Shown here: positions 357-27,715 of the stretch, piece after piece
How positions within the stretch are numbered: position 1 is the first letter of the stretch
Layout: each line of letters begins with the position of its first letter
NCBI GenBank assembly: GCA_022772675.1
Contig: JALEZW010000024.1
Span: 1-64,000, forward strand
Source of the DNA: Agathobacter sp.
GTDB taxonomy: Bacteria; Bacillota; Clostridia; Lachnospirales; Lachnospiraceae
Length of the DNA: 64,000 nt
Direction: 5' to 3'
Made by a program: the position numbers and the translations under genes
Notes under the pieces: generated by a model
Database searches by the model: none
What the model was told of the DNA's origin: nothing
Seen by the model: the letters and a program-made list of their open reading frames with translations, nothing else

Positions 357-392
357 CAAAAAAAATCCCAGGAAATTTTGTTTTCCTGAGAT
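357..392 (-). terminator. Intrinsic terminator of the AAA+ operon
   Basis: On the minus strand the stem TCTCAGGAAA / TTTCCTGGGA has a short AC-AAAA loop and is followed by eight U. It lies 85 nt after the stop codon of the AAA+ ATPase gene and closes that transcription unit. Confidence 0.85.
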
Positions 393-475
393 TTCTATGA
401 AACTATGCAGTTTTCTTCGGGTACCATTCCCACCCCCTGCCCCCTGCCCGACTCCCAGGGGGAAATACCAGCCCA

Positions 476-1594
476 TTAAACGTCACTTTCTGGTTCAAAA
501 TTATATTCAAAGTCTTCTGGAACAAGTAATGATAATTCTTCATCTGTTGGATTCTGTATCAATACTACCCTTTTTGCATGGTTCATGACCAAATCATCAT
601 AAATATTTCTTGCCAATCTTCCATTAGCAAAATGATCACCTTTATGTTCTACTTCATATACAAAATATTCCTTGATTTCATCTTTTAATTCCGCGCTTAA
701 ATGATAATCATTTTTTTCACAAATTGACTCTAGTATACTTGTCAATTCATCAGCAGAATAATCGCTAAATTCAATGAATGTATTAAATCTAGACTGTAAT
801 CCCGGGTTAGATTGAAAAAAAACTTTCATCGGCTCTGTATATCCCGCTACAATAACAACTAAATCCTCCCTGTAGTCCTCAAGTGCTTTTGTCAATTCTG
901 TTAAACATTCTCTTCCGTATGAATCACTATGGTCATTTTCTGTTATACTGTAAGCCTCGTCAATAAACAAAACCCCTCCCTTAGCTCTCTCAATAACTTT
1001 CTTAACCTTTAACGCCGTTTGTCCCTGATATCCGGCAATTAAATCCGTTCTTGAAACTTCCACAAAATGCCCTTTTGATAGTAATCCAAGCTGCTTATAT
1101 ACATGTCCAACTATACGCGCAACTGTGGTTTTTCCCGTTCCCGGATTACCAGTAAATGCCATATGTAATGTCCTTTTTACACTATTTAGTCCGTGTTCAT
1201 TTCTTATTCTTTGAACCGATTGGAATGCTATTAAATCATTTACTTGCTGCTTGACATTAACTAATCCTATCAGTTTATTTAATTCGTCCATTAGCTCAGC
1301 AAGTGATCTTTCATCTCCATAATCTTCATTGTCACTGTCACACACTGATTTTACATAATAATAGCCACAATATTCCAGTAAACAATCATTGAGAGCCTTA
1401 ACAAAAGATTTTATTTCCCTACCCGAATTTTCATTTGATGAGATTTCAGATATTTTGTTTACCATATTCTTAATTTCTTCTTCATCACGTGTATCGACAA
1501 TCTTATTTGCACATTTTGTTATTTTCCCACATGCCTCAATCATAGCATCCAATTTAGATGCAATATCTAAAAAATTTTTTTCATATATATTCAT
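476..1594 (-). CDS. CbxX/CfxQ-type AAA+ ATPase
   Basis: A 372-aa ATPase. Residues 1-95 form a helical N-terminal region without a recognised domain. The AAA+ module has Walker A GNPGTGKTT (about 150-158), the pore-loop segment IAGYQGQT (about 187-194), Walker B VLFIDEA (about 209-215), a sensor-1 segment VIVAGYT and the arginine-finger region NPGLQSRF (about 264-271). These are hallmarks of the CbxX/CfxQ family (rubisco-activase CbbX, SpoVK, EccA of type VII secretion). Such ATPases remodel partner proteins through the pore, so a likely substrate is one of the three proteins encoded upstream. An ATG at 1594 directly follows an in-frame GTG at 1597, which overlaps the stop of the previous gene by one base, so translational coupling is expected. 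It is the last gene of a riboswitch-controlled operon. What it remodels is unknown. Confidence 0.9.
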   Translation of the reverse strand: MNIYEKNFLDIASKLDAMIEACGKITKCANKIVDTRDEEEIKNMVNKISEISSNENSGREIKSFVKALNDCLLEYCGYYYVKSVCDSDNEDYGDERSLAELMDELNKLIGLVNVKQQVNDLIAFQSVQRIRNEHGLNSVKRTLHMAFTGNPGTGKTTVARIVGHVYKQLGLLSKGHFVEVSRTDLIAGYQGQTALKVKKVIERAKGGVLFIDEAYSITENDHSDSYGRECLTELTKALEDYREDLVVIVAGYTEPMKVFFQSNPGLQSRFNTFIEFSDYSADELTSILESICEKNDYHLSAELKDEIKEYFVYEVEHKGDHFANGRLARNIYDDLVMNHAKRVVLIQNPTDEELSLLVPEDFEYNFEPESDV

Positions 1595-1596
1595 CA

Positions 1597-2787
1597 CTAA
1601 AAAATACCCAGTATATTCAGAATCAAGTCCATAATCCCCAATCCCATTGCAACGCCTGCTACGGAATATGCTATCACAAGTTTCCGTTTTAATCTCTCGA
1701 TTGCAGTCTGATGTATACTTTTTTCCTCCTCTAGAATATCAGATAATGCACAAACATCTTCTTTTCTCTTTTCAATTTCTTTTGTAACCGCTTCTTTTAA
1801 TTCAGCACTGTCCTGTTTCAAACCTGTAACTGAGGAATCTATCTCTTTTTGCTGCTCATACATAGCATCAATATCTTCTTTGCACGTTTCTATATTATCC
1901 CACATCTCATCTATCTCAGGTAAATGTTCATATGAATTTATCTGATTAACTGATTTTTGAAGATTCTCTATGGCATGTTCAAAACCATGCATGGCAGCAT
2001 GAATATCCTCAATATCTGACCTGGATTTTGAGATGGATTCCTCTGCTGTGCACACTCTGTCCCAAATTTCATCTACATCCTCTATATGTTCATAATCAAG
2101 AATACTATCAGCAAATCTTTGTAAGGTTTTTATACTTTTCTCAAGACTTGACAATTTCTTATTTATATCTTTTAAATTATCTCTTGATTTTTTCTCAAGG
2201 CTTTGTAATGACCTCCAAATTTCATCAACATTTTCCAGATGTTTTAGCTTATCTAATTTATCCTTATGCTTTTCTAGGACTTTGATCATCTGTTTTTGGT
2301 TACGTACAGCCTCACTGATCTCTTCCTGTGCTTTTCTAGCATTGTCTATCGCCTTTTGGGCCTGATTACTTGCCAGTTCAGCCCCTTTTACAGCAGAAAG
2401 AATGGCTGGGATATATTGCCCGTCCAATGATTCCAAAGCAATATACACCTGGCCCACTGCCTTAATCACGTCCGTATTAACGCCCTGTAATGTAATTAAA
2501 TAATCTTGAATCTGTGATACTATATTATTTAATTCATTTCCAGTGACCTTATGCTCGCCTAAACCGAACAGACCACCTGAAGTCGGCACATGATCTAATC
2601 CAAAATCTGACATTGTTCTTTGAGAAAAAGATTGTAATTCATTCTTTGCATTTTTAAAAGACGTAAATTTCAACTCATGCTCCATCGGAATCATGGTCAA
2701 TTCATTTTGTATCCCATTTTCAACATCAAAATCCGCTACCTCACCTATCTTACCCTGAGATTTTTTCATATCTTCGGTATTTATCAA
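1597..2787 (-). CDS. Tail-anchored coiled-coil protein with threefold repeat
   Basis: A 396-aa protein of unknown function. Most of residues 130-370 is charged and heptad-like, suggesting a long coiled coil. Within it a short motif occurs three times: LKHLENVDEIW (about 181), YEHIEDVDEIW (about 232) and YEHLPEIDEMW (about 286), spaced by 51-54 residues. A single hydrophobic segment at about 371-393 lies at the very C-terminus, as in tail-anchored proteins, so the coiled coil is probably cytoplasmic. The start is TTG, supported by GGAGG seven bases upstream. It is the third gene of the four-gene operon and its stop codon overlaps the AAA+ gene start. The conserved Trp repeats could be docking sites for the neighbouring ATPase; that is inference. 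Confidence 0.8.
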   Translation of the reverse strand: MINTEDMKKSQGKIGEVADFDVENGIQNELTMIPMEHELKFTSFKNAKNELQSFSQRTMSDFGLDHVPTSGGLFGLGEHKVTGNELNNIVSQIQDYLITLQGVNTDVIKAVGQVYIALESLDGQYIPAILSAVKGAELASNQAQKAIDNARKAQEEISEAVRNQKQMIKVLEKHKDKLDKLKHLENVDEIWRSLQSLEKKSRDNLKDINKKLSSLEKSIKTLQRFADSILDYEHIEDVDEIWDRVCTAEESISKSRSDIEDIHAAMHGFEHAIENLQKSVNQINSYEHLPEIDEMWDNIETCKEDIDAMYEQQKEIDSSVTGLKQDSAELKEAVTKEIEKRKEDVCALSDILEEEKSIHQTAIERLKRKLVIAYSVAGVAMGLGIMDLILNILGIF

Positions 2788-2805
2788 ATTCTTGCCTCCA
2801 CTATC

Positions 2806-3162
2806 TTAGTCATCTAATAACTTATCCAATGCTCTATCCATTTCTTCGAATACTTCTTCCCCCTCTGATACAGGTGTCTGCACTGGTTCTCTAACAATAT
2901 TTTTTAATGACTCATCCATTACCTTAGCGGCCTCTTTGTGTCTTCTCTCTATACTCTCTTGAACATATGCTCTCGTGCATGCACTCTTTTCCGCCTCAGC
3001 TTGGAAATCACTCTTTGTATCATTTTTTTCTGCCATAGAGGCACTCGGATTCGTCTGTTCCTTTTCTACATTTTTGTTCTTCGCCTGACTTTTAACTGCC
3101 AAAAATACACCACATCCAATTGTTGCAACAGCAACTATGCCTACTACATATTTTGCCTTCAT
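2806..3162 (-). CDS. Small membrane-anchored protein sharing the 605-aa protein's C-tail
   Basis: A 118-aa protein. Residues 5-24 form one hydrophobic segment (signal anchor), followed by a polar, Lys/Glu-rich linker. The C-terminal half contains SIERRHKEAAKVMDESLKNI and ends in EEMDRALDKLLDD. The same pattern ends the 605-aa protein encoded just upstream (SISKRHMEASEVLRDALETI and EMDQRIRKLLEE). Two otherwise unlike proteins therefore share a tail, perhaps a recognition tag for a common partner such as the AAA+ ATPase. The start has AGAGAGAGG nearby and lies 12 nt after the previous stop, so the gene is co-transcribed. No known family recognised. Confidence 0.75.
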   Translation of the reverse strand: MKAKYVVGIVAVATIGCGVFLAVKSQAKNKNVEKEQTNPSASMAEKNDTKSDFQAEAEKSACTRAYVQESIERRHKEAAKVMDESLKNIVREPVQTPVSEGEEVFEEMDRALDKLLDD

Positions 3163-3174
3163 ATATACCTCTCT

Positions 3175-4992
3175 CTACTCTTCGAGCAATTTTCTTATTC
3201 TTTGATCCATTTCCGCAATTTCCTCGCTATGATCAATATCTTCATAATCTGTTTCGCCATTTTCTTTGATTGTTTCTAATGCATCCCTCAATACTTCAGA
3301 TGCTTCCATATGCCTTTTTGAAATGGAGTTAATCACATCTTCCTTTGCTTTATCGGTTTTTGCAATGGCTACATCCCTTATTTTATCCTGTGTAGTCAGG
3401 ATTTCGTTTCCTTTTTCAATTTTTTCTTTGGTCAATTGGGCTTTCTGTTTCTTGGCAATAAGGCTATTAATTAAATTAATAGCAAGTGCTCCAATAATTC
3501 CTAAAACTATTGCTCCCATAAACATTCCAATTATGCTCGCAAGACTTCCAAATAAAGGTATTTCCACTGCAAACAATGGTATTGTAATTAATCCTTTCTC
3601 TATCACTTCTCCCAATACAATAGTTCCCCCAGCAGTTAAACCAGCTATTATTATTTTACCAACCTCCATCATAAGAATGCCTATTGGCTTATTTTTATTC
3701 CTTGGATCTTTAATATATTCAATCGATTTCTTTAATGACATCCATCCCTGCTTAATAAACATCCAAGCTTTTTTAATTGTATTCACAACCGGACCAAGAA
3801 TTGACATAGCAATCACTGTGACTGCTGTATCTGCAACATTAACTACATTGTTCTTTAAATCAAGGACAAAGGTCACAATCGCATCTTTGACATATTTTAA
3901 AAGGGATTTCAAATTTCTCTTTGCCGACTTAAGCCAAAGAATAAATTTCGCAATTATCTTTTTTATCAACTCTGCCAGCAATGTCATTACAACTGCACGT
4001 GCTGCTTTTTTTCCTACTCTTAAAGTTTCTGCTTTTTGTGATTTTTTTCCTTCTACTCTTGCCCTTTCTTCTGCGTCATTCTTAAGTTTTTCGTATTCTT
4101 TTCTGGCTTTTCTGTCTTTTTCTACATATTCATCTTCATCAAGTCCAAAAAATTCTGCATTTGTCTGACCTTCCCCTTGGCTTCCTTTTTCCCTTTCATG
4201 TTTAGCCCACTTTTCACCATTGTGGTCATTTTTTGATTCATTTGCGGATGAATCCAGTTCGTTAAGATTTTTATCCGAAATTGCAAAATCTACTCTCTCT
4301 TTCTCTGACATAAAAGCATTCGCAGACGGATCACGAATAATTTCCCCTGCTGATACCTGATGATCTTCATGATTTCCATTTTTCCCTACTGGTCGTCCCT
4401 CATCATAAGGCTTGCGCACCGAATTATCTTTAATCTTCTTTTTCCATTCACCATCTATCTTATCATAGGATTCCCATACACCTTTTTTATCATTGTATCG
4501 CTCCTTAGGCTCCCAAATACCCTTTTTTTCATTATAATATGACCATGTCTTTGTTTTCTCATCATATTTATGGTTTTTACTATTTTTGTACTTATACTCT
4601 TCATTGGGATCAGTCTTAAACTGCCCCATATATTTATCATATTTTTCCTTATAATCTGTGTTTGTATTATGGGTCGCAAGCTTACCATATTCAAAATTGT
4701 CTGTAGTCTGAATATGCGCATCATTGCTTAAATCCAATTTCAACATATTATTGTCTTTAATAAAATCCTCACCTGCCTGGATTGCAATTTGATTTGTAAA
4801 TTGTTCCCAAACAGTGTTTAAGATGACATTACCCAAAGCATCCGGATCTCCAATCTGTTCCTTTTGCTCATCTAGAAAATCCAAATCAGCCATCTGTTCG
4901 TCCAGACTCTCTTGTAACTGTCTTTCCAACTCGTCAAAATCTAAACTCTCATGTTTTTTACTTTTTGAAATTGTTGCATTCTCATTTGCCAT
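3175..4992 (-). CDS. 605-aa multi-pass membrane protein with W-repeats and HNH-like motif
   Basis: First gene of the riboswitch operon. Residues 1-130 are acidic and soluble. Residues 143-183 hold four short repeats ending in Trp (YDEKTKTW, YNEKKGIW, YNDKKGVW, YDKIDGEW). Residues 209-254 contain EDHQVSAGEI and, 20 residues on, SDKNLNELDSSANESK, a DH...N...N spacing like that of His-Me finger (HNH) nucleases; this is a motif-level guess. A charged linker follows, then hydrophobic stretches at about 330-354, 383-406, 445-466 and 480-512. The C-terminus (550-605) repeats the tail of the 118-aa protein. The start ATG has GGGAGAGG upstream and sits about 185 nt downstream of the riboswitch terminator. 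The composition suggests a membrane-bound effector or assembly platform. No characterised homologue is known to me. Confidence 0.75.
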   Translation of the reverse strand: MANENATISKSKKHESLDFDELERQLQESLDEQMADLDFLDEQKEQIGDPDALGNVILNTVWEQFTNQIAIQAGEDFIKDNNMLKLDLSNDAHIQTTDNFEYGKLATHNTNTDYKEKYDKYMGQFKTDPNEEYKYKNSKNHKYDEKTKTWSYYNEKKGIWEPKERYNDKKGVWESYDKIDGEWKKKIKDNSVRKPYDEGRPVGKNGNHEDHQVSAGEIIRDPSANAFMSEKERVDFAISDKNLNELDSSANESKNDHNGEKWAKHEREKGSQGEGQTNAEFFGLDEDEYVEKDRKARKEYEKLKNDAEERARVEGKKSQKAETLRVGKKAARAVVMTLLAELIKKIIAKFILWLKSAKRNLKSLLKYVKDAIVTFVLDLKNNVVNVADTAVTVIAMSILGPVVNTIKKAWMFIKQGWMSLKKSIEYIKDPRNKNKPIGILMMEVGKIIIAGLTAGGTIVLGEVIEKGLITIPLFAVEIPLFGSLASIIGMFMGAIVLGIIGALAINLINSLIAKKQKAQLTKEKIEKGNEILTTQDKIRDVAIAKTDKAKEDVINSISKRHMEASEVLRDALETIKENGETDYEDIDHSEEIAEMDQRIRKLLEE

Positions 4993-5176
4993 AATAATAC
5001 CTCTCCCTTAACGCTGGTAGTGTCAAAAACTACCCATTTTTATTATACAACCTTTTTAAGACACATTTTGTCATTCTTTTTTATGACTTGCTACACTCGC
5101 TTTGTAAATTAATCAAAACTCTCAATTTTTGAATGAATCTATACCATAATAATACAATTAGTTATACACCCCTATA

Positions 5177-5205
5177 AAGAAAAACATCATAGTTGCCTAT
5201 GATGT
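5177..5205 (-). terminator. Riboswitch expression-platform terminator
   Basis: On the minus strand the nine-bp stem ACATCATAG / CTATGATGT with loop GCAA is followed directly by UUUUUC. It begins two bases after the 3' strand of the aptamer's P1 stem, so ligand binding probably decides whether it forms. Whether c-di-GMP switches the operon on or off cannot be decided by eye. Confidence 0.85.
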
Positions 5206-5206
5206 C

Positions 5207-5287
5207 ATTCACCAATTGTAACTGGCTGCCATTTCAAAGGCCCTTTAGTTTTGCGTCACTGATTTTCATCAGTTTTGCCCTGAATAA
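5207..5287 (-). ncRNA. Cyclic-di-GMP-I (GEMM-I) riboswitch aptamer
   Basis: The minus strand carries the conserved landmarks of the c-di-GMP-I class in order: GGGCAAA; a P2 hairpin ACTGAT-GAAA-ATCAGT with its GNRA tetraloop; GACGCAAA; CTAAAGGGCC; and TGGCAGCCAG. The flanks ATTCA and TGAAT close P1. An intrinsic terminator follows immediately and a canonical promoter precedes it. The downstream genes are the four-gene AAA+/membrane operon, starting 215 nt away on the same strand. The aptamer class is recognised from its sequence signature and is the strongest functional clue for that operon. Confidence 0.9.
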
Positions 5288-5300
5288 TCTTCTAATGCCT

Positions 5301-5329
5301 ATTATACTCGTCTGATATGTAGATATCAA
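5301..5329 (-). promoter_or_regulatory. SigA promoter of the riboswitch operon
   Basis: Minus-strand TTGATA (5324-5329), a 17-bp spacer and TATAAT (5301-5306). Transcription would start near 5294, just before the aptamer. A second TATAAT-like box at about 5038-5043, nearer the first gene, lacks a well-spaced -35. Confidence 0.8.
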
Positions 5330-6751: not shown

Positions 6752-7081
6752 TCATTTGTCCTCTTTTGCTACAACAAACTCCGTTTTACCTAAATCCTCT
6801 GCTGCTAAAATATCAAGCAGACGAAACGCTGGTCCCGTCGGATGTGTCCTGCCACATTCCCATGCTTCGACTGTCTTTTTGGAAACTCCCATATAGGAGG
6901 CAAACACACTCTGAGTCATACCTGCTTTCATTCTGATATTACGAATCTCTTTATCCGAATACTCCTTAACAGGTGATATCATATACGTTTTTACTTTAGC
7001 CTCACCCTGTCCTTTCTCGTAATCAATCGCTTCCTCCAGACCTTGTTTTAAATCATCAAATAATGAACTCAAAGAAATCAC
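6752..7081 (-). CDS. HigA-type antitoxin (XRE helix-turn-helix)
   Basis: A 109-aa protein whose middle part (about residues 45-95) is an XRE domain: RNIRMKAGMTQSVFASYMGV followed by SKKTVEAWECGRTHP. The N-terminal part is predicted to bind the toxin. The gene overlaps the end of the toxin gene by four bases (ATGA), the usual toxin-first HigBA arrangement. The antitoxin would repress the operon through the palindrome in the promoter at 7455-7483. Such pairs stabilise mobile elements. Confidence 0.85.
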   Translation of the reverse strand: MISLSSLFDDLKQGLEEAIDYEKGQGEAKVKTYMISPVKEYSDKEIRNIRMKAGMTQSVFASYMGVSKKTVEAWECGRTHPTGPAFRLLDILAAEDLGKTEFVVAKEDK

Positions 7082-7425
7082 CTCCTATTCTTTGCCGCCT
7101 CGTCCTTTAAGGATTTTACCAGCTTCTTAAGTACATTTTTTTCTTCTTTTGTGAGGTTTTCCTGTTCCTTCTTTTCAAAGGCAGTGATCAAATATATCAC
7201 TTCATACTCCTCAAAATCTGTGTAGCAAACTCGAACTCCTCCGCTCTTCCCCCTATTTTCTAATGGAAATCTAACCTTACGAATGCCCCCTGTTCCTTCC
7301 ATAACCGGCCCTGATTCCGGATCTTTTAACAACATAATCTGCAATGCCTTAAGTTCATCATCACCCAGACCGATTTCTTTCCACCTCTTAGTAAACAGTG
7401 GTACCTCGATAAATGTTCTTGTCAT
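7078..7425 (-). CDS. RelE/HigB-like toxin
   Basis: About 115 aa, read here from MTRTFIEVPLFTKRW, the better supported start; a longer frame begins at 7443. Features of the RelE/HigB superfamily are the basic stretch with VRFPLENRGKSGGVRVCYTD in the middle and the hydrophobic strand VIYLITAF near the C-terminus. Relatives cleave mRNA, often at the ribosome. It is first in a two-gene operon with the XRE antitoxin and has its own promoter and operator. The pair is independent of the element's conjugation genes and probably acts as an addiction module. Confidence 0.85.
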   Translation of the reverse strand: MTRTFIEVPLFTKRWKEIGLGDDELKALQIMLLKDPESGPVMEGTGGIRKVRFPLENRGKSGGVRVCYTDFEEYEVIYLITAFEKKEQENLTKEEKNVLKKLVKSLKDEAAKNRR

Positions 7426-7454
7426 TCGTTCATTACCTTTCATCTTTTTATAAT

Positions 7455-7567: not shown

Positions 7568-9268
7568 TTATTCATGTTCATACGTACTTCTGTCAATACT
7601 CGTGTGAAACAGCTTAAGCAGTGTTCTCTGACTGGTCAGCTTTTTAGTCTCCGTGTTTCCGGCAAAATCCCTTGCAATGACAAGATAATAATCCACATGA
7701 TCATTGGTGGGGTTGATATCGTAATAGACATCAAAGCTGGAATGGGTATCCGGTGCACCCCATGTTTTCTGCGTGGTGGAGCTGTAGATTGCCGTCATCA
7801 CTTCATTCTTTACCTTATAGACAATAACACTGGAAAGCCCGGAAGTGCAATTCGGATGATTTGGGCTTCTGTGTGCCTCATCGTCGATGTGCTGGCTGAT
7901 GATATTATCCTGGCAGTACCCGGAATAGGTGATTCCATGTTCTACATGCGTAACCTCCGTGCCATCCATTCCCGGCGGTGTAATATCATACTTTGTCGAA
8001 ACAGTTGCAGACACGGTATGCCCTACATTATCCGTTCCCGTAATATTCCAGGTATGAATTCCCTCATATTTATCCGCCAGCTCATAGCGGACTCTTTCAT
8101 TTCCACTGGCTACTATATTTCCACTGTCATCCTGAATGACGATGGATGCAAGACCGGATCCGTTATAAGTAGTTCCATAGAGATAATCCGTTGCCGAAAT
8201 TGCAATGACCGGTGCCGTATTTGTCCAGTCGCTGACCGTATTTTCCATCCCGTATAAAACCGGCGCAGAGTGATCCAGATAAATGGTCCTTGATGTTTTT
8301 ACCGATGAATTGCCATCTTTATCCCTAACCGTCAGCATATAATAGAACACACCTTCGCTGCTCTCCGTGTAACTTCCATAGACCATATCCTTCGTTCCGC
8401 CACAGGACCAGCTTTTCACTGTACTCCAGGTTCTGGTTACAAAAGAATATCTCTCCAGTGTAATAGACGATATTCCAGAGCCCTCGTCCTGCGCATGGAA
8501 TGTTACAGAACCATTTCCCGCACTCCAGTGATTCGGTTTCGCAATCAGATCACTGCAATCCGGTCCCGTTTCATCTTTCCAGTTTGCCTTCATGGTAACG
8601 GTTCCGCCGTCCTGGTCATGGGTGTAACTTCCACCCGGATTATAGGTTCCCCCAATACTTGCTTTCCAGTTCTGAAAAGAATACCCCTCCCGGGTCGGTT
8701 TCCCGGATCTCAAGGTCAATGTCTGACCCTGCTTTTTTCTCTGGCTATCTGGCGCACCGGTTCCCCCATTGGCATCGTAGGCAACTGTGTGCGTCTTTTT
8801 TCTGATCTTCCCAGCAGATACAAAGGTCAGATATCCGCCGGAGACCTTCCAGATTCCGTTTCCGTTATCATAATATCCCATTTCTCTAAGCTGCTCTTTG
8901 GTCTCTGCAACGGTCATGTCGTAACCACCCCTTCGGATCATATCGCTCAGCGCACTATCTAGAGAACTTCCCAGTCTTGGATTCTGGGTATTCAATACGA
9001 TATCATCCTCTGCGCTGGTAAAAGTATGTGTCGTGGAATTTCCGAATGTCCGGATTGGCCGTTCCGTCACTACCTTAAGCTCAATGGAGTCCGTCTGTGC
9101 ATTGTATCGGTAATAATAGGTATATACATTCGATCCACTCACATGACCCTGATCCGTGTCTCCCGTTTCTGCAATTTCATCTGCAGATACTACGGATATG
9201 GAAGACAAAATCATTGAAACTGCAAGCAGAAACATCACTGCGTATTTATAGATACTTCTCTCCCTCAT
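7568..9268 (-). CDS. Large secreted protein with InlB-type repeat
   Basis: About 566 aa from the ATG at 9268 (GGAGGAG upstream). Residues 1-30 are a signal peptide (KYAVMFLLAVSMILSSISVV, then SAD). At about 160-235 lies a Listeria-Bacteroides (InlB B-type) repeat: VAYDANGGTG, GYSFQNW and VTMKANW. The rest is a run of immunoglobulin-like segments with SGI/SGL and T-D-NVG patterns, as in surface adhesins. No LPXTG anchor or C-terminal membrane helix is visible, so the protein may be released or bound to another surface component. It is the last gene of the relaxase-ATPase-peptidase operon, suggesting a role in cell-cell contact during transfer. Confidence 0.75.
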   Translation of the reverse strand: MRERSIYKYAVMFLLAVSMILSSISVVSADEIAETGDTDQGHVSGSNVYTYYYRYNAQTDSIELKVVTERPIRTFGNSTTHTFTSAEDDIVLNTQNPRLGSSLDSALSDMIRRGGYDMTVAETKEQLREMGYYDNGNGIWKVSGGYLTFVSAGKIRKKTHTVAYDANGGTGAPDSQRKKQGQTLTLRSGKPTREGYSFQNWKASIGGTYNPGGSYTHDQDGGTVTMKANWKDETGPDCSDLIAKPNHWSAGNGSVTFHAQDEGSGISSITLERYSFVTRTWSTVKSWSCGGTKDMVYGSYTESSEGVFYYMLTVRDKDGNSSVKTSRTIYLDHSAPVLYGMENTVSDWTNTAPVIAISATDYLYGTTYNGSGLASIVIQDDSGNIVASGNERVRYELADKYEGIHTWNITGTDNVGHTVSATVSTKYDITPPGMDGTEVTHVEHGITYSGYCQDNIISQHIDDEAHRSPNHPNCTSGLSSVIVYKVKNEVMTAIYSSTTQKTWGAPDTHSSFDVYYDINPTNDHVDYYLVIARDFAGNTETKKLTSQRTLLKLFHTSIDRSTYEHE

Positions 9269-9270
9269 GT

Positions 9271-10011
9271 TCACTCCTCCGTTTCTCTCCAATTATTGAT
9301 GCTAACCTGTAAAAACAGGCTTTTTGTAATTGTTTCATCCCCACTGCGGTATTGTACAACTGCTGTAATGCTGTCCGGAACCAGCTTCCCGTCTTCTGTC
9401 TCGGTTGTCTGATAAAAGACCTTATTCTCCAGAAGCTCGTCATACCTGGTTCCCTGCAGCATCTTCTCCAGCACACTGCATGGATTCTTAAGCACATAAG
9501 TCTTTTCCTTTGTCATCTCATAGGTTTCCTTATCATATACCGCCTGGTTTAAGTCCCCATCCACCCCACTGGTTTCCAGCAGTTTTTCAAACACCTGGCG
9601 GCCATCCATGCCTTCATAGGAAAAACCGAATCCTTCCTCAAAATCCACTGTTTTTACCAGAGAATCATCCATCTGCTCCTCTTTGAGGGATACAGAATAA
9701 TCCTCTGTGTGGTCACTTTCTTTTTTTAGATTCACATCTGACACCAGATAGGCTGCGTATTCTGTTTTTGAATTTCCATCCAGGTCTTCCGTTGTAGTCC
9801 GCTCCACCTTTTCCACCGTGATATGATCTGCTGCTCCAAAGGATTCCTGAAAATTATCCTTAAATGGTCCTGCTTCCGTTTTTTCTGTACTGACAACAGG
9901 CGATTTAGTTTCAGTCTCTGACTTATCCTTCCTGTTCATTCCACATCCTGCTGCCATAACGACACCTGTCAGTAAGATTACCATGAATACTGTACTCATT
10001 CTTCTTTTCAC
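9271..10011 (-). CDS. Lipoprotein, transfer-operon hypothetical
   Basis: A 246-aa protein with a lipoprotein signal: basic MKRRMS, hydrophobic core, then a lipobox ending AAGC (Cys about 23). A low-complexity Ser/Thr/Lys linker follows, then a soluble domain without recognised family. The gene sits between the 565-aa cytoplasmic protein and the secreted InlB-repeat protein with overlaps or gaps of a few bases on both sides, so all are co-translated. A surface-exposed lipoprotein next to a Tad-type ATPase and a prepilin peptidase may serve as a pilotin or assembly factor; this is inference. Confidence 0.7.
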   Translation of the reverse strand: MKRRMSTVFMVILLTGVVMAAGCGMNRKDKSETETKSPVVSTEKTEAGPFKDNFQESFGAADHITVEKVERTTTEDLDGNSKTEYAAYLVSDVNLKKESDHTEDYSVSLKEEQMDDSLVKTVDFEEGFGFSYEGMDGRQVFEKLLETSGVDGDLNQAVYDKETYEMTKEKTYVLKNPCSVLEKMLQGTRYDELLENKVFYQTTETEDGKLVPDSITAVVQYRSGDETITKSLFLQVSINNWRETEE

Positions 10012-11705: not shown

Positions 11706-12194
11706 TTACATAAGCCTCCAAATCAAGCCTCCCGCCAGCAATATGCCAATGACCAGGGCTGGTCCTGGTATGACAGCTACCTCCGGAGGCAGTTCACCTT
11801 TTTTCTTTCTCCTCTTTTCTATCTGGCAGATAAAAATGGAAAGGATAAGTCCCAAAGAAAGTGTCAGACACTCCCTGACTGCAACTGCATATCCATTCGC
11901 CACTGGCCCTGCAGCAAGACAGGCATTCCCAAACAGAAGGAATATATCACTGTCTGCCCCTCCCCAGATCTGCCAGGCATTTAACAAAACATATATAAGA
12001 AGATGCATCAGCCAGAAACGGCTTAGGAAATCATCCGGCCAGTCCGTTCCCAGCCATAGATAAAAACTCCAGGCCTGCTGCAGAAAAAGGATAGGAAATG
12101 CATACACCATCCGATCCTTAAGATCCTGCCAGGAAGCCGCAGCAAGCAGCACAATCGTCACCACCGTAAGAACCGCATATACAAAAGCCGTCAT
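11706..12194 (-). CDS. Prepilin peptidase-like membrane protease (A24 family)
   Basis: About 162 aa from the ATG at 12194, chosen because it has GGAGAGCGGG upstream and overlaps the ATPase stop by four bases. Five to six hydrophobic segments are visible. The two aspartates of this GxGD-type family appear in ASWQDLKDRMV (first) and GGADSD (second), the latter with Ala instead of the usual second Gly. Such enzymes cleave and often methylate type IV pilins (TadV/CpaA group). The partner pilin may be the truncated small protein at 102-248 or a gene further left. Confidence 0.7.
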   Translation of the reverse strand: MTAFVYAVLTVVTIVLLAAASWQDLKDRMVYAFPILFLQQAWSFYLWLGTDWPDDFLSRFWLMHLLIYVLLNAWQIWGGADSDIFLLFGNACLAAGPVANGYAVAVRECLTLSLGLILSIFICQIEKRRKKKGELPPEVAVIPGPALVIGILLAGGLIWRLM

Positions 12195-13411
12195 TTCCCG
12201 CTCTCCTTTCGGTAAACCTCCGCAAACCGAAGTTTCTTTTCTGCTGCATCCCATCCATCAATCTCAAGGATCTCATCAATGGAAAAGCGGCTCATATGAA
12301 CCAGCACAAAAGGCACACAGGTCAGCATTTCCTCCAGCGTTTCCATCGGATAATCTGACACATACCGGGCGCACTGGGCGAGCCGGACCACTGAACTTCT
12401 GGCGTCATTTGCATGGATTGTACCGAAAAATCTCGCCCCCGTACTCAGCGCGGTGGTAAACACATGCAGTGCCTCGCCTCCCTTGATCTCCCCGATCACA
12501 AAGTTGTCAATATCCTGCAAAAGCCCAAGCCGCAGTTCATCCTCCAATGTGAAATCTGCCATTGTATGCTCAAACTGTATCTGTGGATGCACATTGCTGT
12601 ATAGTTCATCAGATTCCTGGGAAACCAGAACGGATTCCTCAAAGGGGATCCAGTCCATCATATTGTTAAGGAGAGTAGACTTTCCGGATCCTCCCCTTCC
12701 GGAGATCAGAAAACCATATCCCGCAAGAACCCGGTCCCTCAGATACATCTCCATATCCTCATCCAGCATTCCGTTTTCCATTAGATACTCCCAGGAAAAC
12801 TTTTCCTTAGGCATCTTTCGGATATGGATATTATTCTTTTCTGTTGATGTGATACAGGAGTGCTGCACATCAATACGAAGATAGTAGGAATCCTCCCCCT
12901 TCCGGTCGGTACAGTGCCCAAGGGCATCCGCTTCGGTTCTGCCCAGGCCGTGAATTCTCTGGATCCGCTCAAACCAGGACGCATAATCCTCTTCGCCGAA
13001 AAAGCTTACATCTGCCAGATATCTGCTTCCGTTTGCTTTTACAACCACATGGTCGTAATCCAGCACCTTAATATCTGACACATCCTTTGCACGGATCAGC
13101 GGAGTCAGGACATAATAACCAAACACACACTGCCGGAACATTTCCAACAGCTTTCCGGTCTTCTGCGAATCCAGTGCCGGATAAGCATAAGCCAGGAAAT
13201 CCTTCGCACGGTTCATGAGCATGATGAAATCCTGCTCTGTTCCGGTTATGCACTTCGTGACCAGGGCCGGATTTAAACCGCATACATTGGCCTTCATCCT
13301 TAAAAATGGCTCTTTGAGCTCTTCATCCTGATAGATGGAGCTAATGTGATAGATTTCCGACTTCTGCTTTAACTTCCCGTCAGACTTTTTTACATAGTTC
13401 AGCCGTCCCAT
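12191..13411 (-). CDS. CpaF/TadA-type secretion ATPase of the mobile element
   Basis: A type II/IV secretion ATPase of about 406 aa. It has Walker A ISGRGGSGKST, the Asp box around VSQESDELY, Walker B-like NFVIGEIKGGEA and the His box GTIHAND. It would power pilus or transfer-channel assembly at the inner face of the membrane. The ATG at 13411 is preferred over GTG at 13423 because GGGAGG lies 11 bases before it. It is distinct from the chromosomal TadA at 55867 and belongs with the relaxase, prepilin peptidase and lipoprotein, so the element seems to carry its own Tad-like apparatus. The 33-nt motif (copy B) lies just upstream. Confidence 0.88.
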   Translation of the reverse strand: MGRLNYVKKSDGKLKQKSEIYHISSIYQDEELKEPFLRMKANVCGLNPALVTKCITGTEQDFIMLMNRAKDFLAYAYPALDSQKTGKLLEMFRQCVFGYYVLTPLIRAKDVSDIKVLDYDHVVVKANGSRYLADVSFFGEEDYASWFERIQRIHGLGRTEADALGHCTDRKGEDSYYLRIDVQHSCITSTEKNNIHIRKMPKEKFSWEYLMENGMLDEDMEMYLRDRVLAGYGFLISGRGGSGKSTLLNNMMDWIPFEESVLVSQESDELYSNVHPQIQFEHTMADFTLEDELRLGLLQDIDNFVIGEIKGGEALHVFTTALSTGARFFGTIHANDARSSVVRLAQCARYVSDYPMETLEEMLTCVPFVLVHMSRFSIDEILEIDGWDAAEKKLRFAEVYRKESGK

Positions 13412-13434
13412 CGCATTTCTCACCTCCCATTAGG

Positions 13435-13467
13435 TACATGGAGCATAAGAAAGCTGATTACAGAAAC
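13435..13467 (-). promoter_or_regulatory. Dispersed 33-nt leader motif, copy B
   Basis: Minus-strand GTTTCTGTAATCAGC, seven bases, then TGCTCCATGTA, abutting the relaxase stop codon and ending 23 nt before the ATPase start. No SigA boxes are obvious within it. Confidence 0.6.
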
Positions 13468-15311
13468 TACGGGACAATTTTTCTGGTATTTTTCCTGTGT
13501 ACCTGACAGTCCTTTAATCCATACTCCCCTGCCAGTGCAAAGATGGCATCGTTGAATGCCTTTGCATCCATGTCCTTTGAGGAAATCTCCCGCAGGACCT
13601 CGTCTTTTTCCCCTAAAACCGTAATCTCTGTGACAACAGATGCCTTTCCTTTTACCACATCCGGTGTCGTGACCACCCGGACGACGATATCCTCCCGTCC
13701 CCGCGCCGTGATATATTTCAGGCTGCTGGTACAGATTCCATAATCCCTTGCCTCCTGTCTGGCTTCGCTATGGCCCACCGCCCGGAAAAATGACAGGACA
13801 TTCTCATCCGTGCGGAAGGTTCCCTTTTCTTCATAGGCCCTGATTGCTTTATACTGTGCTTTCAGCTCTGTTTCCTGTGCCTTTGAATAGAGAAGCTGGT
13901 CTTTCTGGTCACGTACAAAAGCCGCTACCTCATCCACGGTTTTTCCGTATATTTTCTCAAGTCTCTGTGAAAGCTCGCTGTATGCCTCAAACTCGCTTTG
14001 ATACTCCGTCTGTCCACAGACATCATACAGATAGGCATGAAGCATATACTTTTTCATCTCCTCATAAATGGCAGTCTGCGGCCGATATGATTTCAAATTC
14101 TCCCGCAGTTCCTTCCTCTCCCTTGACAGTTCTTTTCTTCTCCTTATGAGCTCATCCAGTGCATCCTTCACATGATCACTGCCACCGGAATAATAATGCA
14201 CCAGCTCGCACACATAGCCTGTCTCATTCAGCTGCTTTTCCATCTTTCTCAACTGCCAGTTATCCTTTCCAGTCTCCTCCCAGGGATTTCTCCCCAACTT
14301 CAGCAGTCTTTTTGCATGAGCCTTTTCCTGTTCATTCATATCCCGGTACTGTTTCATCTTAGCCGGCGTAAAGGAAAGCATATCCTTTTGCGATATATAA
14401 TGGGCATGCGGGCCGATTCCTTTCCAGACGATGGGGTCAAGTTTTGAAGCCAGCCGCCTGCGCAGTGCGTCCGGTGTATAGTTTTCCCCCAGCTGTCCAA
14501 TGCGCATGGCGTGCTCCATTCCCTCCATCTGCAGTGTGACCGTTTTCCCCACATTGACCACCAGTCCCTCCGACCTTAAATACGCGATGAATGCCGCAAA
14601 GTCATCCGTCTGTTCCACTGCATAGTCCACAAGTTTCCTAAGAATCGTTTTCCTTTGGGCAAGCGGGATCTGTTTCGGCTGTTTCTCTCTTCTCCACTGC
14701 CCGTTCGGCGTAAACCCGTATTTTTCAGCTAATGCATTGACTGCCGGTTCCAATACACGGCTCATAAATTTTCTGTCCATGTGAATCTTTTTCCCATCCA
14801 GCCCCACTGTATTAATAATGAAATGAATATGGAGATTCTCCGTGTTTGTATGGACCGCATACACCACCTGATTCTCCGGAAACACCTGTTTCATCAACTC
14901 ATCCAGTAAAAGCATGAGTTTTCCTGCATGCGAGGGATCCGATTCCGATTCATCCAGGGAAATTACCCCGTGTGTGGCAACTCTTCCGTCCAGTTTTCCA
15001 TAAAATTCTTTGACCTGCATCATCTCCTCCACAGCATGGCTCACATCTGAAATATGCCGGGTTCCTACATATAATCCATCCATCGTTTTGATGTCATCCG
15101 TGACATAGGAGAGCTCATTTCCCACCTGCCTGACAGGCAACTCTCCCAGCTTCACACCGGTCTTTTCCGGATTTTCAATATAGTCAATGGAACTTCTGAT
15201 CTGTGCTGCACCGGACCTTGTCTGTTTTCCCGCTGTTACATTCCAGATCTTTACTACAATTCCCTGTGCCAAACGCTTTCCCCCCCTACTAAATCTCCTT
15301 TCATTTGCCAT
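13467..15311 (-). CDS. MOBP-type relaxase
   Basis: A relaxase of about 614 aa. The N-terminal 250 residues show the expected motifs: an early segment TRSGAAQIRSSIDYIENPEK, and the metal-binding motif III HTNTENLHIHF, fitting H-x(n)-H-x-H of VirD2/MobA-like relaxases. The rest is a long helical region with charged coils. It would nick oriT and pilot the strand during conjugation. The start is uncertain: ATG 15311 lacks a clear Shine-Dalgarno, and TTG 15272 (after GGGGGG) would start right before the conserved IVVKIWNV. MobC-like and candidate oriT sequences lie 3-6 kb upstream on the same strand. Confidence 0.85.
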   Translation of the reverse strand: MANERRFSRGGKRLAQGIVVKIWNVTAGKQTRSGAAQIRSSIDYIENPEKTGVKLGELPVRQVGNELSYVTDDIKTMDGLYVGTRHISDVSHAVEEMMQVKEFYGKLDGRVATHGVISLDESESDPSHAGKLMLLLDELMKQVFPENQVVYAVHTNTENLHIHFIINTVGLDGKKIHMDRKFMSRVLEPAVNALAEKYGFTPNGQWRREKQPKQIPLAQRKTILRKLVDYAVEQTDDFAAFIAYLRSEGLVVNVGKTVTLQMEGMEHAMRIGQLGENYTPDALRRRLASKLDPIVWKGIGPHAHYISQKDMLSFTPAKMKQYRDMNEQEKAHAKRLLKLGRNPWEETGKDNWQLRKMEKQLNETGYVCELVHYYSGGSDHVKDALDELIRRRKELSRERKELRENLKSYRPQTAIYEEMKKYMLHAYLYDVCGQTEYQSEFEAYSELSQRLEKIYGKTVDEVAAFVRDQKDQLLYSKAQETELKAQYKAIRAYEEKGTFRTDENVLSFFRAVGHSEARQEARDYGICTSSLKYITARGREDIVVRVVTTPDVVKGKASVVTEITVLGEKDEVLREISSKDMDAKAFNDAIFALAGEYGLKDCQVHRKNTRKIVP

Positions 15312-15380
15312 AACCGCAAAACAGCCGCCCGGTACGGGCAGCTGCTCAAAAGGAGGATTTATCAATAAATAACGAAATCT

Positions 15381-21870: not shown

Positions 21871-23103
21871 TCATAAATCTGAATTATATTCAATCACTCC
21901 ATACTTCTTCTCCAAGTCTGCCAGCCGTCCGTCGATATAGTCCTTCGCATTCCCCGATAACCTGATATGAGCCTTCTGGTAATGCTTCTTTGCCACATCG
22001 GATATTCTTTCGTTTTTTCCGAATGAGGATATATAAGTATCTGAACCAAGCTCATCCCAGATTTCATCCATCGGTATGCCATCTTCGACCGGCATATCCA
22101 GAATTCTTGAATCCTTTATAATACAATACCATGGATATCTGCTCATCCATTTATACTGGCTTACCCACTCTTCCTTCACGCGGTTCTCATCCTGAAAAGC
22201 TGCAAGATGCCCTCTTCCAACTATGACAGGCTGATTCTTTCCCTTGGCATCCATCGTCAATGCCGCAAAATAAATCTCATCATCTTCCTTGACGGAATGC
22301 ACCTTAAAAGGATAGTTTGACAAATACCAGGTTCCATCTGGAACATCAACCATAGTCATAGGGAACCCGTCCTTTGCCTCCAGACGGTCATTGCCTTCGC
22401 CTTCAAACTTAAGCCATATCGTATGATCATAAAATACCTGTTCCTTCTGTTCAGATGTTTTAAACATCGAATCAACGAGGTCCTCGTCCATCCCGCATTT
22501 TTCAATTTCACTCAATGCCTCTATAGAATCTTCAAATGTCGTTCTTCTGTTCAAAGCCGCACCATACATGAATGTGCTTATCACCTTGTCCTTCCCTTTT
22601 TTTGAACTGAAGGTAAACTTGTACTTTTTCCTACCCAACACAAGAACATCCTTGGTAATCCTTCCCTCATCAGATTCTTTGATTTTTTTCAACAAATCAT
22701 CAAAATATGCCTTAAGCTCCCCCAGTATGCCATCATCGCGGCTGATTAGCAGCGATAGTTCAATATTGGATTTGAATCCACCGGCAGTAAAGTTCGCAGA
22801 ACCCAGTATCCCATAATCGTCATCAAAAAGATACAGTTTTGTATGAAGCCCTTTCAACGCATATATTTCTATTCCTGCATCCATCATCATCTCAATGGCA
22901 TCCATACTATTTGCTTTTGCAAACATATCCTCTAGATAAAATCTAGTTATAAATTTACAATCAATATTGTCATTACTCACCACATCACATAGTTTTTTTG
23001 CCATAGCTATGGATATAAAGGGACTAATGATTTTTATTTCTCTCTTGGTCCCATCAAATAGGTCTAATATTTTCTCATAGTGGTCATTGGTCAAGACCTG
23101 CAT
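21871..23103 (-). CDS. PLD-family nuclease-like protein
   Basis: A 410-aa protein. The N-terminal 140 residues have one HKD motif (HTKLYLFDDDYGILGSANF, about residues 81-99), where H, K, G and N are in place. Enzymes with a single motif work as dimers. The C-terminal 250 residues form an unknown domain. PLD-like proteins occur in several antiphage systems (for example as DrmC of DISARM), but drmA and drmB are absent here. It follows the SieB-like gene by 14 bases, so the two are co-transcribed. Confidence 0.78.
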   Translation of the reverse strand: MQVLTNDHYEKILDLFDGTKREIKIISPFISIAMAKKLCDVVSNDNIDCKFITRFYLEDMFAKANSMDAIEMMMDAGIEIYALKGLHTKLYLFDDDYGILGSANFTAGGFKSNIELSLLISRDDGILGELKAYFDDLLKKIKESDEGRITKDVLVLGRKKYKFTFSSKKGKDKVISTFMYGAALNRRTTFEDSIEALSEIEKCGMDEDLVDSMFKTSEQKEQVFYDHTIWLKFEGEGNDRLEAKDGFPMTMVDVPDGTWYLSNYPFKVHSVKEDDEIYFAALTMDAKGKNQPVIVGRGHLAAFQDENRVKEEWVSQYKWMSRYPWYCIIKDSRILDMPVEDGIPMDEIWDELGSDTYISSFGKNERISDVAKKHYQKAHIRLSGNAKDYIDGRLADLEKKYGVIEYNSDL

Positions 23104-23117
23104 ATTCGTCCCCCTTG

Positions 23118-23663
23118 CTATTTCAATTGAAATCCAATATGATTTCCAGTAATTTGAATATTTCCCTCTGCGAGATTTTTATTAAGAAATTCGAGCGCAT
23201 ATGGTTGTAGATTATAAGAAAATCCTTCAATGAGATTCCCCATTCGAGAAGCCAAATAAATAATATGTTTACGTTGCAATGGTGTTTTTCTTCCATCAGT
23301 ATAATCAATTTTTCCAGAAGAACAAAATCTTTTATTTCTGTCATCATAAAATGTTTCAATTAATAGACACATTTCATCCGGACTCATATATTTTTTCATA
23401 TAGTCGAGAGCAATTTTCTTTCCATTATGAAATTTTCTCCAAATAGAATTCTTAATCCATATAAGCATACATAAAAAATAATATGCACCTATGACCATTA
23501 TGCATAAACTAATATATGTTTGATATGTATTTCTAAAGGCATCTATTTTCATCTTACTAGCCAACCAATCAGGTATTAAGGTTATAGTCAATGCCGCTAT
23601 GAACACAATTGCAAACAGTTCCTTCAATTTTAATTTTTCAATAATGCTTTTAATAATTCCCAA
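23118..23663 (-). CDS. SieB-like superinfection exclusion protein
   Basis: A 181-aa protein with two hydrophobic segments at about 14-32 and 46-69, separated by the short loop with IPDWLASKMKIDAFRNTYQ, then a soluble C-terminal domain. This two-helix layout and the PxWL..F...Y pattern are those of the superinfection exclusion B family. Members block phage infection at the membrane after injection. It stands next to the PLD-like gene and downstream of the restriction-modification operon, so it adds a second line of phage defence. Assignment is based on recalled family features. Confidence 0.65.
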   Translation of the reverse strand: MGIIKSIIEKLKLKELFAIVFIAALTITLIPDWLASKMKIDAFRNTYQTYISLCIMVIGAYYFLCMLIWIKNSIWRKFHNGKKIALDYMKKYMSPDEMCLLIETFYDDRNKRFCSSGKIDYTDGRKTPLQRKHIIYLASRMGNLIEGFSYNLQPYALEFLNKNLAEGNIQITGNHIGFQLK

Positions 23664-24285
23664 AATATCACTCCTATTTCTCTAGGCAATCTCCAATAAA
23701 CACTTGTCTATTATTCATTGCGTTATAGCAGCTTCTGTGTAATAACAGATTTTATATGGGATATGCCACGAACAAATTCACATCTCCGCCAATCATTTCA
23801 TCCAATGTCCTTAGGCCCTCCCCTTTATTATTCAGAAAAATATTTACCCTGTAAATCGCCATCTTGTCATCCCTATCTTCTATATGTTTCAATTCCTGCA
23901 ATTTTTCCGAAAACACCCTCTTTCTTCTTAGAAGCTGTAACTAATTATTCTCCAGTAAGCAATATCAGGTTTTATCACAAGCAGTTTATCGGAAATCACT
24001 CTTGCCATGTCATAATATTTTCTATTTCTGGTTGTATCATAAACATACTTGCCACATCCTCTGCCCTCAAAATAGTTCCACCAATACCTTATTCACCAAT
24101 TACATCCATAAACCTCTACGCTGATCTGACCAGTGCATTTGAACACAAGACAAAAAGTGCGTAAAATTCCAGTGCCTTGGTCGATCCTATATCCTGTAAA
24201 TCCTAATAATTGAAAATAAAATCCTTATTTATCTTTTCTCCCTGATTTTTATGCTCCCACCATAGCAAGTAAATCTAATCTGTTA
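23664..24285 (-). pseudogene. Gene remnants between SieB-like and DUF3883 genes
   Basis: No intact gene is seen in 620 bp. On the minus strand broken frames can be read, for example GIGGTILRAEDVASMF around 24080 and, near the end, MAIYRVNIFLNNKGEG (about 23755-23868) followed by a stop. They are separated by stops and frameshifts. A plus-strand frame of 148 codons at 23718-24164 is without start signals and is judged to be chance. Confidence 0.4.
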
Positions 24286-27713: not shown

Positions 27714-27715
27714 AC

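What the first reader, a model, noticed from the sequence alone, without database searches (positions are those of the whole stretch)
357..5329. A c-di-GMP riboswitch controls an undescribed four-gene AAA+/membrane module
Seen: promoter TTGATA-17-TATAAT, GEMM-I aptamer, intrinsic terminator, four co-directional genes, final terminator. Known: c-di-GMP-I riboswitches usually control motility, adhesion or surface structures; CbxX/CfxQ AAA+ proteins remodel partner proteins, and EccA of type VII secretion is a relative. Inferred: a second-messenger-controlled membrane machine, carried as AT-rich cargo in a mobile element, composed of a multi-pass effector, a tail-sharing small protein, a tail-anchored coiled coil and an ATPase. 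I know of no description of this set.
Basis: partly seen in the sequence, partly recalled or inferred. Interest (0 to 1): 0.92.

Follow-up and report, generated by a model that had tools for sequence, protein, structure and literature searches.

The report
c-di-GMP-switched membrane-nuclease defence candidate
A bacterium carries, near mobile-element and defence genes, a four-gene set also found in several other bacterial groups that probably guards the cell membrane against phage DNA, and here it sits behind an RNA switch that reads the lifestyle signal c-di-GMP.

Summary
In detail: promoter (5329-5301), c-di-GMP-I aptamer (5289-5214, 60 bits, E 3e-9), terminator, four co-directional genes, end terminator. 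The four-gene set is conserved: in 18 of 18 testable loci with an intact first gene (M), coiled-coil and AAA+ genes follow; in 16 of 18 the small tail-sharing gene lies between. Hosts are mostly Firmicutes, plus one Treponema. The riboswitch is not general: 2 of 22 loci, this one and Muricomes intestini. Function is most likely defence against incoming DNA, not motility: M is distantly related to the PADLOC candidate PDC-M40B, has an HNH-like motif before its membrane segments, and WYL regulators lie near six loci. The small protein's tail is homologous to M's tail, which was not found in the related AAA+-less type. The Muricomes leader folds like an OFF switch; the window's does so less clearly. 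Against: no family model or structure confirms the nuclease, structure prediction never ran, some neighbourhoods are not defence-like, and no experiment exists. New variant of the membrane-nuclease defence kind; interest 0.7.

The parts
5301..5329 (-). Promoter TTGATA-N17-TATAAT
   Evidence: 11 of 12 consensus bases
5214..5289 (-). c-di-GMP-I (GEMM-I) riboswitch aptamer
   Evidence: RF01051, 60 bits, E 3.2e-9; only match found in the genome
5183..5206 (-). Intrinsic terminator of the riboswitch, directly after the outer helix P1
3175..4992 (-). M: 605-aa predicted membrane protein with HNH-like motif, hydrophobic segments and conserved C-terminal tail; distant relative of PADLOC PDC-M40B
4231..4365 (-). 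HNH-like motif in M (D210 H211 ... N242 L243 ... N251 ... K254); no family model confirms it
   Evidence: weak profile match to the Cas9 HNH site (not significant)
3448..4005 (-). Hydrophobic (predicted multi-pass membrane) part of M, aa about 330-515
   Evidence: Kyte-Doolittle scan
3178..3369 (-). C-terminal tail of M (aa 542-605), homologous to the tail of S
2806..3162 (-). S: 118-aa protein, N-terminal hydrophobic segment plus the shared tail
   Evidence: profiles of M also find S
1597..2787 (-). CC: 396-aa coiled-coil protein with conserved N-terminal domain and C-terminal hydrophobic segment (TTG start; several relatives begin about 35 residues later)
476..1597 (-). AAA+ ATPase of the CbbX/SpoVK/EccA class; Walker A, Walker B and pore-loop segments conserved (motif names recalled)
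361..396 (-). Operon-end terminator hairpin with U-run
   Evidence: fold (z -4.2); scan lists the repeat on the + strand only

Best explanation
The operon is a mobile innate-defence module against phage (or other incoming) DNA, of a type that moves between Firmicutes on plasmids, prophages and integrative elements. M sits in the cell membrane and carries a cytoplasmic HNH-like nuclease domain. CC is a tail-anchored helical partner that holds or senses. The CbbX-class AAA+ hexamer engages the C-terminal tail shared by M and S and so assembles, releases or resets the membrane nuclease; S, a membrane stub bearing the same tail, is a competitor or scaffold for that engagement. In this strain a strong promoter drives the operon by default, and a c-di-GMP-I riboswitch probably terminates transcription when c-di-GMP is high: on in low-c-di-GMP cells, down in high-c-di-GMP (sessile) cells. 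Shown here by sequence: aptamer, terminators, conserved gene order, tail homology and its restriction to the AAA+-bearing type among the proteins tested, mobile and defence-like neighbours in part of the loci. Inferred: defence function, nuclease activity, tail engagement by the AAA+ protein, sign of the switch.
For: Defence family: M matches PADLOC PDC-M40B (E 5.2e-8); five of five relatives tested from the two-gene type match it at E 3e-34 to 6e-88. Context: WYL regulators (PF13280) near 6 four-gene loci, 6 of 6 candidates tested, and 2 two-gene loci; WYL is described as a regulator of defence systems (PMC4012209, passages). Type I restriction genes near the L. cremoris plasmid copy, Sau3AI restriction near a two-gene copy; an integrase or serine recombinase near L029, L038 and L040, 3 of 3 tested. 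In the window, 5 of 10 proteins tested match defence models: DrmC-like PLD, NOV_C (PDC-S36), C5-methyltransferase, MzaB-like, SNF2 helicase, 21.9-31.3 kb; a relaxase lies at 13.5-15.4 kb. Unit: CC and AAA+ follow M in 18 of 18 testable intact loci; S in 16 of 18. HNH-like motif: N242, L243, N251, K254 invariant in 17 of 17 four-gene M proteins and H211 in 16; H, two N and a nearby E invariant in 11 segments of both types, 11 chosen of the 14 shown. Tail: S-tail profile finds 17 of 18 M proteins at the C-end (E 1.3e-4 or better), 0 of 10 two-gene-type proteins, 0 of 5 CC, 0 of 4 AAA+, 0 of 37 shuffles. AAA+: solved relatives are CbbX (E 4e-59) and EccA1 (E 3e-50). Riboswitch: same arrangement in Muricomes (51.2 bits), with TTGACA-17-TATAAT and a terminator after P1; its MFE folds at 102-114 nt are an alternative that breaks the aptamer and occupies the terminator's 5' arm. 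11 of 12 C. difficile c-di-GMP-I riboswitches are OFF (PMC3649979, passages). The genome has 22 GGDEF matches, so ligand is probably made.
Against: No Pfam nuclease model matches M, its 17 aligned relatives or six two-gene relatives, apart from one chance-level Cas1 listing at E 0.043 in one relative, and no solved structure matches significantly. The Cas9 HNH comparison is not significant (E 0.18); with the full M alignment the best Cas9 match is elsewhere. L036 has E for the motif H; L041 and L047 have E for the D; L033 lacks the nearby E, and two two-gene proteins (L027, L028) have M for the K. PDC-M40B is only a candidate class. Some neighbourhoods are not defence-like: bacteriocin genes beside the L. 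lactis plasmid copy, metabolic genes around the Variovorax two-gene copy. WYL was tested only where an ORF looked likely, not in all loci. The riboswitch is absent from 20 of 22 loci. S is missing in L045 and L047, and L038's M tail is not recognised. In the window leader the alternative fold is the MFE at only two of the eight lengths tried (102 and 105 nt); from 108 nt on the terminator is in the MFE without ligand, so thermodynamics alone does not give an ON state there. Terminator probabilities printed read wrong pairs and are not used. Structure prediction never ran.
Confidence: 0.6

Rival explanations
1. Membrane nuclease acting on the host: an abortive-infection module in which AAA+/CC keep M quiet and phage damage to the membrane releases it to cut host DNA.
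For: Same anatomy and context; a AAA+ and a tail-bearing small protein fit a restraint role; conserved tails on M and S.
Against: Nothing here separates direct from abortive action; no AAA+ gene of this kind was seen beside six two-gene-type loci as far as the fetched flanks reach, so restraint by AAA+ is not general to the family.
Confidence: 0.3
2. A surface or secretion machine (T7SS-like or adhesion-related) under c-di-GMP control, close to what the first reader's background implies.
For: EccA is a relative of the AAA+ protein; c-di-GMP-I riboswitches often control motility or adhesion genes (recalled; flagellar and surface genes in PMC3649979, passages).
Against: AAA+ scores below the curated cut-offs of EccA, CbbX and SpoVK alike; I saw no recurring secretion or adhesin gene in the ORF lists of the homologous loci, which I read by eye and did not search systematically.
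Confidence: 0.08
3. Superinfection- or conjugation-exclusion system of the mobile elements themselves, rather than a defence kept for the host.
For: Copies on plasmids, in a stretch held as a viral contig and near recombinases.
Against: Compatible with the leading explanation rather than opposed; the window copy lies in a region with other defence-like genes.
Confidence: 0.25
4. The riboswitch next to the module is an accident of insertion behind a resident riboswitch.
For: 20 of 22 loci lack it; 92 of 250 family genomes have at least one such aptamer.
Against: Two genera carry it on the operon strand with promoter and terminator, each as the only hit found in its genome (for Muricomes, with strict filters and 16 of 233 candidates scored). 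My rough estimate for one chance placement within 1.5 kb upstream is about 2.5e-4 per genome with one aptamer (own arithmetic, no call).
Confidence: 0.15

Closest known systems
PDC-M40B (PADLOC-DB phage-defence candidate), found with a PDC-M09A-like partner
   Same: Homologous large protein with the same HNH-like motif; WYL regulators near two loci
   Different: Two-gene layout with no AAA+ gene seen in six fetched neighbourhoods; no S-type tail in 10 of 10 proteins; window M is only a distant match (30 bits)
SNIPE (membrane-bound nuclease that cuts phage DNA during injection; PMC13190303, abstract and passages seen)
   Same: Idea of a nuclease fixed in the inner membrane against incoming phage DNA
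   Different: SNIPE is one protein with an N-terminal membrane helix, DUF4041 and GIY-YIG; here an HNH-like motif, several hydrophobic segments and three further genes; the words HNH and AAA occur 0 times in that main text
CbbX / SpoVK / EccA AAA+ ATPases
   Same: AAA+ core and lid; E 4e-59 to CbbX structures. CbbX acting on the C-terminal tail of Rubisco is recalled, not from a call
   Different: Below the curated cut-offs of all three families; different gene partners
c-di-GMP-I riboswitches of Clostridioides difficile (PMC3649979, passages)
   Same: Same aptamer class, premature termination; 11 of 12 there are OFF; two lie in prophage lysis modules
   Different: None of those described in the passages I saw controls such a module
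Zorya (recalled)
   Same: Multi-gene membrane-based defence, some types with an HNH protein
   Different: No ZorA/ZorB model among the PADLOC hits of the four proteins

Membership tests
c-di-GMP-I riboswitch (RF01051) | Covariance-model score above gathering cut-off | tested here: met
   60 bits against 35; Muricomes 51.2
c-di-GMP-I riboswitch (RF01051) | Ligand-dependent control of the operon | not testable with these tools
   Folds suggest OFF, clearer in Muricomes than in the window; no ligand data
PDC-M40 (PADLOC) | Profile match of the large protein | tested here: met
   E 5.2e-8, 30 bits; distant; the PADLOC table shows no cut-off
PDC-M40 (PADLOC) | Two-gene partner of the related loci (PDC-M09A-like) | tested here: not met
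   CC matches PDC-M09A only at E 0.0032; layout is four genes with AAA+. Of three partners tested in the two-gene type, two match PDC-M09A
HNH / His-Me finger nucleases | D-H ... N ... N/H motif conserved | tested here: met
   exceptions L036 (H to E), L041 and L047 (D to E). Pattern recalled
HNH / His-Me finger nucleases | Significant family-profile or fold match | tested here: inconclusive
   No Pfam HNH hit; Cas9 HNH site at E 0.18 with the segment alignment only; fold could not be predicted
CbbX/SpoVK/EccA AAA+ | AAA+ core of this class | tested here: met
CbbX/SpoVK/EccA AAA+ | Curated equivalog cut-off of any of the three | tested here: not met
   SpoVK 273, CbbX 246, EccA 223 bits against 423, 459 and 467
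SNIPE | DUF4041 plus GIY-YIG nuclease | tested here: not met
   No such Pfam match in any of the four proteins at E 0.1
Anti-phage defence system | Protection against phage | not testable with these tools
   Context only

The most novel reading that the evidence does not exclude
A membrane-anchored HNH-type immune nuclease whose activity is gated by a CbbX-class AAA+ motor that reads a C-terminal tail displayed both by the nuclease and by a small membrane decoy, and whose expression is coupled to the planktonic/sessile decision by a c-di-GMP OFF riboswitch: an immune system switched by a lifestyle second messenger at the RNA level.
Probability: 0.3. Interest if true: 0.88.

Novelty: new variant of a known kind. 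Interest (0 to 1): 0.7.

Why it matters
If true, it adds a conserved four-gene family to membrane-based phage defence, gives a natural pair (nuclease and decoy sharing a tail) with which to study AAA+ recognition, and would be a case of a riboswitch that tunes immunity to c-di-GMP. It makes the question 'do bacteria trade immunity against biofilm life?' testable in two strains in which the only c-di-GMP-I aptamer found sits on this module.

Tried and rejected
T7SS/adhesion machine: disfavoured, see rivals. Phage origin: no match of M in 50,697 phage records at E 1e-5; of 77 viral-contig AAA+ loci only L047 and L097 are taken as this module (62-63% identity, contigs already seen), and the other 75 were not examined gene by gene. 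Plasmid search with CC: nothing. Weak PADLOC hits set aside as generic or chance: AAA+ to IetA (E 5.8e-10), DolB and others, CC to LmuB/JetC coiled coils, S to PD-T4-6 (E 1.4e-4); AAA+ also matches phrog_4339 of unknown function (E 5.9e-35). Cas9-HNH comparison: right site but not significant, wrong site with the full alignment. PDB searches for M: nothing significant. c-di-GMP-II in the genome: none, but the control rang nowhere, so absence is not shown. Class-wide search: besides the own genome, only partial, weak matches in 4 of 391 genomes; family-wide, 4 of 397 genomes with a full-length four-gene-type M, own included, and one fragment. Literature: (listings only, capped); none listed shows this four-gene set, and 'PDC-M40' is in 0 papers. 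A 2024 paper on lactococcal plasmid defence systems (recalled) is not held; names of such systems were seen in PMC13335696 passages, and one of them could be the Lactococcus copy.
Full report
What is there. The window begins at the start of its contig (G000:C68:1-64000). On the minus strand, from 5329 down to 361, there are a near-consensus promoter, a c-di-GMP-I aptamer (60 bits), an intrinsic terminator, four closely spaced genes and a strong end hairpin with a U-run (the pattern scan lists that last repeat on the + strand only). I call the genes M (605 aa), S (118 aa), CC (396 aa) and AAA (373 aa). The stretch has 35.1% GC against 43.4% for the rest; 0 of 108 equal windows are as low.

The four genes are a conserved unit. 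Three have a broken or fragmentary M (L030, L043, L176); L043 has no CC or AAA in the 1.5 kb that follow. Of the 19 intact ones, L038's contig ends just after M. In the other 18, CC and AAA follow (18 of 18; L006 by its annotation and gene sizes only). S lies between M and CC in 16 of these 18; no S-like ORF was found in L045 and L047, and S of L032 is cut short. Hosts in the record titles include Lachnoclostridium, Eubacterium, Calidifontibacillus, Streptococcus, Jeotgalibaca, Lactococcus, Muricomes, Suipraeoptans and Treponema. An integrase or serine recombinase lies near L029, L038 and L040 (3 of 3 tested); L029 is the same stretch as an IMG/VR viral contig.

A second, related type. Six loci (L007, L008, L025, L026, L027, L028) have an M-like protein and, as far as the fetched flanks reach, no AAA gene of this kind (some flanks are short). 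Five of these M-like proteins were tested against PADLOC and all five match PDC-M40B at E 3e-34 to 6e-88; of three partner proteins tested, two match PDC-M09A and the Variovorax one (L007) matches nothing. Window M matches PDC-M40B at E 5.2e-8 over aa 92-519. So a relative of M was already on a list of phage-defence candidates; that this is what PDC means is stated in PMC11514479 and PMC13335696 (passages).

What M probably is. In the half before the membrane segments the conserved pattern is D-H ... N-L ... N ... K, that of HNH (His-Me finger) nucleases as I recall it. In 17 aligned four-gene M proteins N242, L243, N251 and K254 are invariant and H211 is kept in 16. Exceptions: E for H in L036, E for D in L041 and L047, and M for K in two two-gene proteins, L027 and L028. 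A segment alignment of both types used 11 of the 14 sequences shown (L029, L033 and L045 were left out; L033 lacks the nearby E that is invariant in the 11). The resident Cas9 shows a similar stretch, and the segment profile picks that site out of 1018 Cas9 residues, but at E 0.18; the full alignment picks another place. No Pfam nuclease or PDB match is significant. I hold the nuclease reading at about 0.7. Hydrophobic segments follow at aa 330-515.

The shared tail. The last 60 or so residues of S and of M are homologous (hhalign probability 98.2, E 4.6e-14, from separate alignments). A profile made only from 14 S tails recognises 17 of 18 M proteins of the four-gene type (E 1.3e-4 or better, each ending within 7 residues of the C-end), and 0 of 10 M-like proteins of the other type, 0 of 5 CC, 0 of 4 AAA and 0 of 37 shuffled sequences (best E among these 2.3; the miss is L038, E 0.9). 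The flanks of four of the ten M-like proteins (L048, L049, L177, L179) were too short to check for AAA. The tail thus tracks the AAA gene where this could be read. CbbX, the closest solved relative of AAA, is known to act on a C-terminal tail of Rubisco (recalled). I infer that AAA handles the tails of M and S; this step is untested.

Context. WYL-domain regulators lie near six four-gene loci (L009, L022, L024, L031, L041, L045; 6 of 6 ORFs chosen by eye were confirmed; other loci were not searched) and near two of the other type. In the window, 5 of 10 proteins tested match defence models, between 21.9 and 31.3 kb: a DrmC-like PLD protein, a NOV_C protein (PDC-S36), a C5-methyltransferase, an MzaB-like protein and an SNF2 helicase; a relaxase lies at 13.5-15.4 kb. 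The L. cremoris copy lies near type I restriction genes, a two-gene copy near Sau3AI restriction. Against this, the L. lactis copy lies near bacteriocin genes and the Variovorax two-gene copy among metabolic genes.

The riboswitch. Of the 22 loci, only the window and Muricomes (L024/L039) gave a c-di-GMP-I match at the gathering score (for L176 its genome G848 gave none, strict filters). L037 has only about 0.6 kb of sequence upstream of M, so absence there is weakly tested. In Muricomes the aptamer precedes a small HTH gene (the listed ORF overlaps it; the true start is probably inside), the WYL gene and then M, on the same strand, behind TTGACA-17-TATAAT. It is the only aptamer found in each genome (150 of 162 candidates scored; 16 of 233 scored for Muricomes), although 92 of 250 family genomes have one or more. 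In both leaders a terminator follows P1. In Muricomes, MFE folds of 102-114 nt are an alternative that breaks the aptamer and uses the terminator's 5' arm, the layout of an OFF switch. In the window such an alternative is the MFE at 102 and 105 nt only; from 108 nt the terminator wins without ligand, so the sign is less clear there. In C. difficile 11 of 12 such riboswitches were OFF (PMC3649979, passages). The genome has 22 GGDEF matches.

How it most likely works. M waits in the membrane; incoming phage DNA, or a change sensed through CC, lets the nuclease domain cut; AAA remodels M through its tail, and S buffers that step. SNIPE (PMC13190303, abstract and passages) shows that a membrane-fixed nuclease can cut phage DNA during injection, so the principle is known; the parts here differ. 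Default expression with repression at high c-di-GMP would keep the defence up in motile cells and lower it in sessile ones. Odds: defence role about 0.75; OFF sign about 0.55 (0.6 before I rechecked); AAA acting on the tails about 0.4.

Novelty. My ten literature searches listed nothing describing this four-gene set or a c-di-GMP riboswitch on such a module. They cover open-licence PMC papers only, I saw capped listings, and a relevant lactococcal plasmid paper is not held. I rate it a new variant of a known kind.

Noticed in passing
window 21871-31253 (-): Defence-like cluster: DrmC-like PLD protein, NOV_C protein (PDC-S36), C5-methyltransferase, MzaB-like protein, SNF2 helicase most like ZorD/DpdE; a Pfam HNH domain lies in the 290-aa ORF at 26841-27713.
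   Followed up: partly
window 12191-15365 (-): T2SSE-type ATPase and MobA/VirD2 relaxase: mobilisation-type genes near the module.
   Followed up: partly
window 6752-7443 (-): RelE-like toxin and HTH antitoxin pair.
   Followed up: no
window 7568-9292 (-): 574-aa protein with a Listeria-Bacteroides repeat, possibly a surface protein.
   Followed up: no
L026, L027, L028, L177 (two-gene type): Their M-like proteins end in a different conserved tail, roughly PWEGDFDTFMGNxSNxLVFE (L027 and L177 vary at a few places), which may be a recognition signal of its own.
   Followed up: no
   Followed up: partly
own genome G000: 22 GGDEF matches but only one c-di-GMP-I aptamer found and no c-di-GMP-II match; the control of the latter search was silent.
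   Followed up: partly
own genome G000:C10:58673-58831: A Cas9-type HNH_4 domain in a 1374-aa open frame.
   Followed up: no
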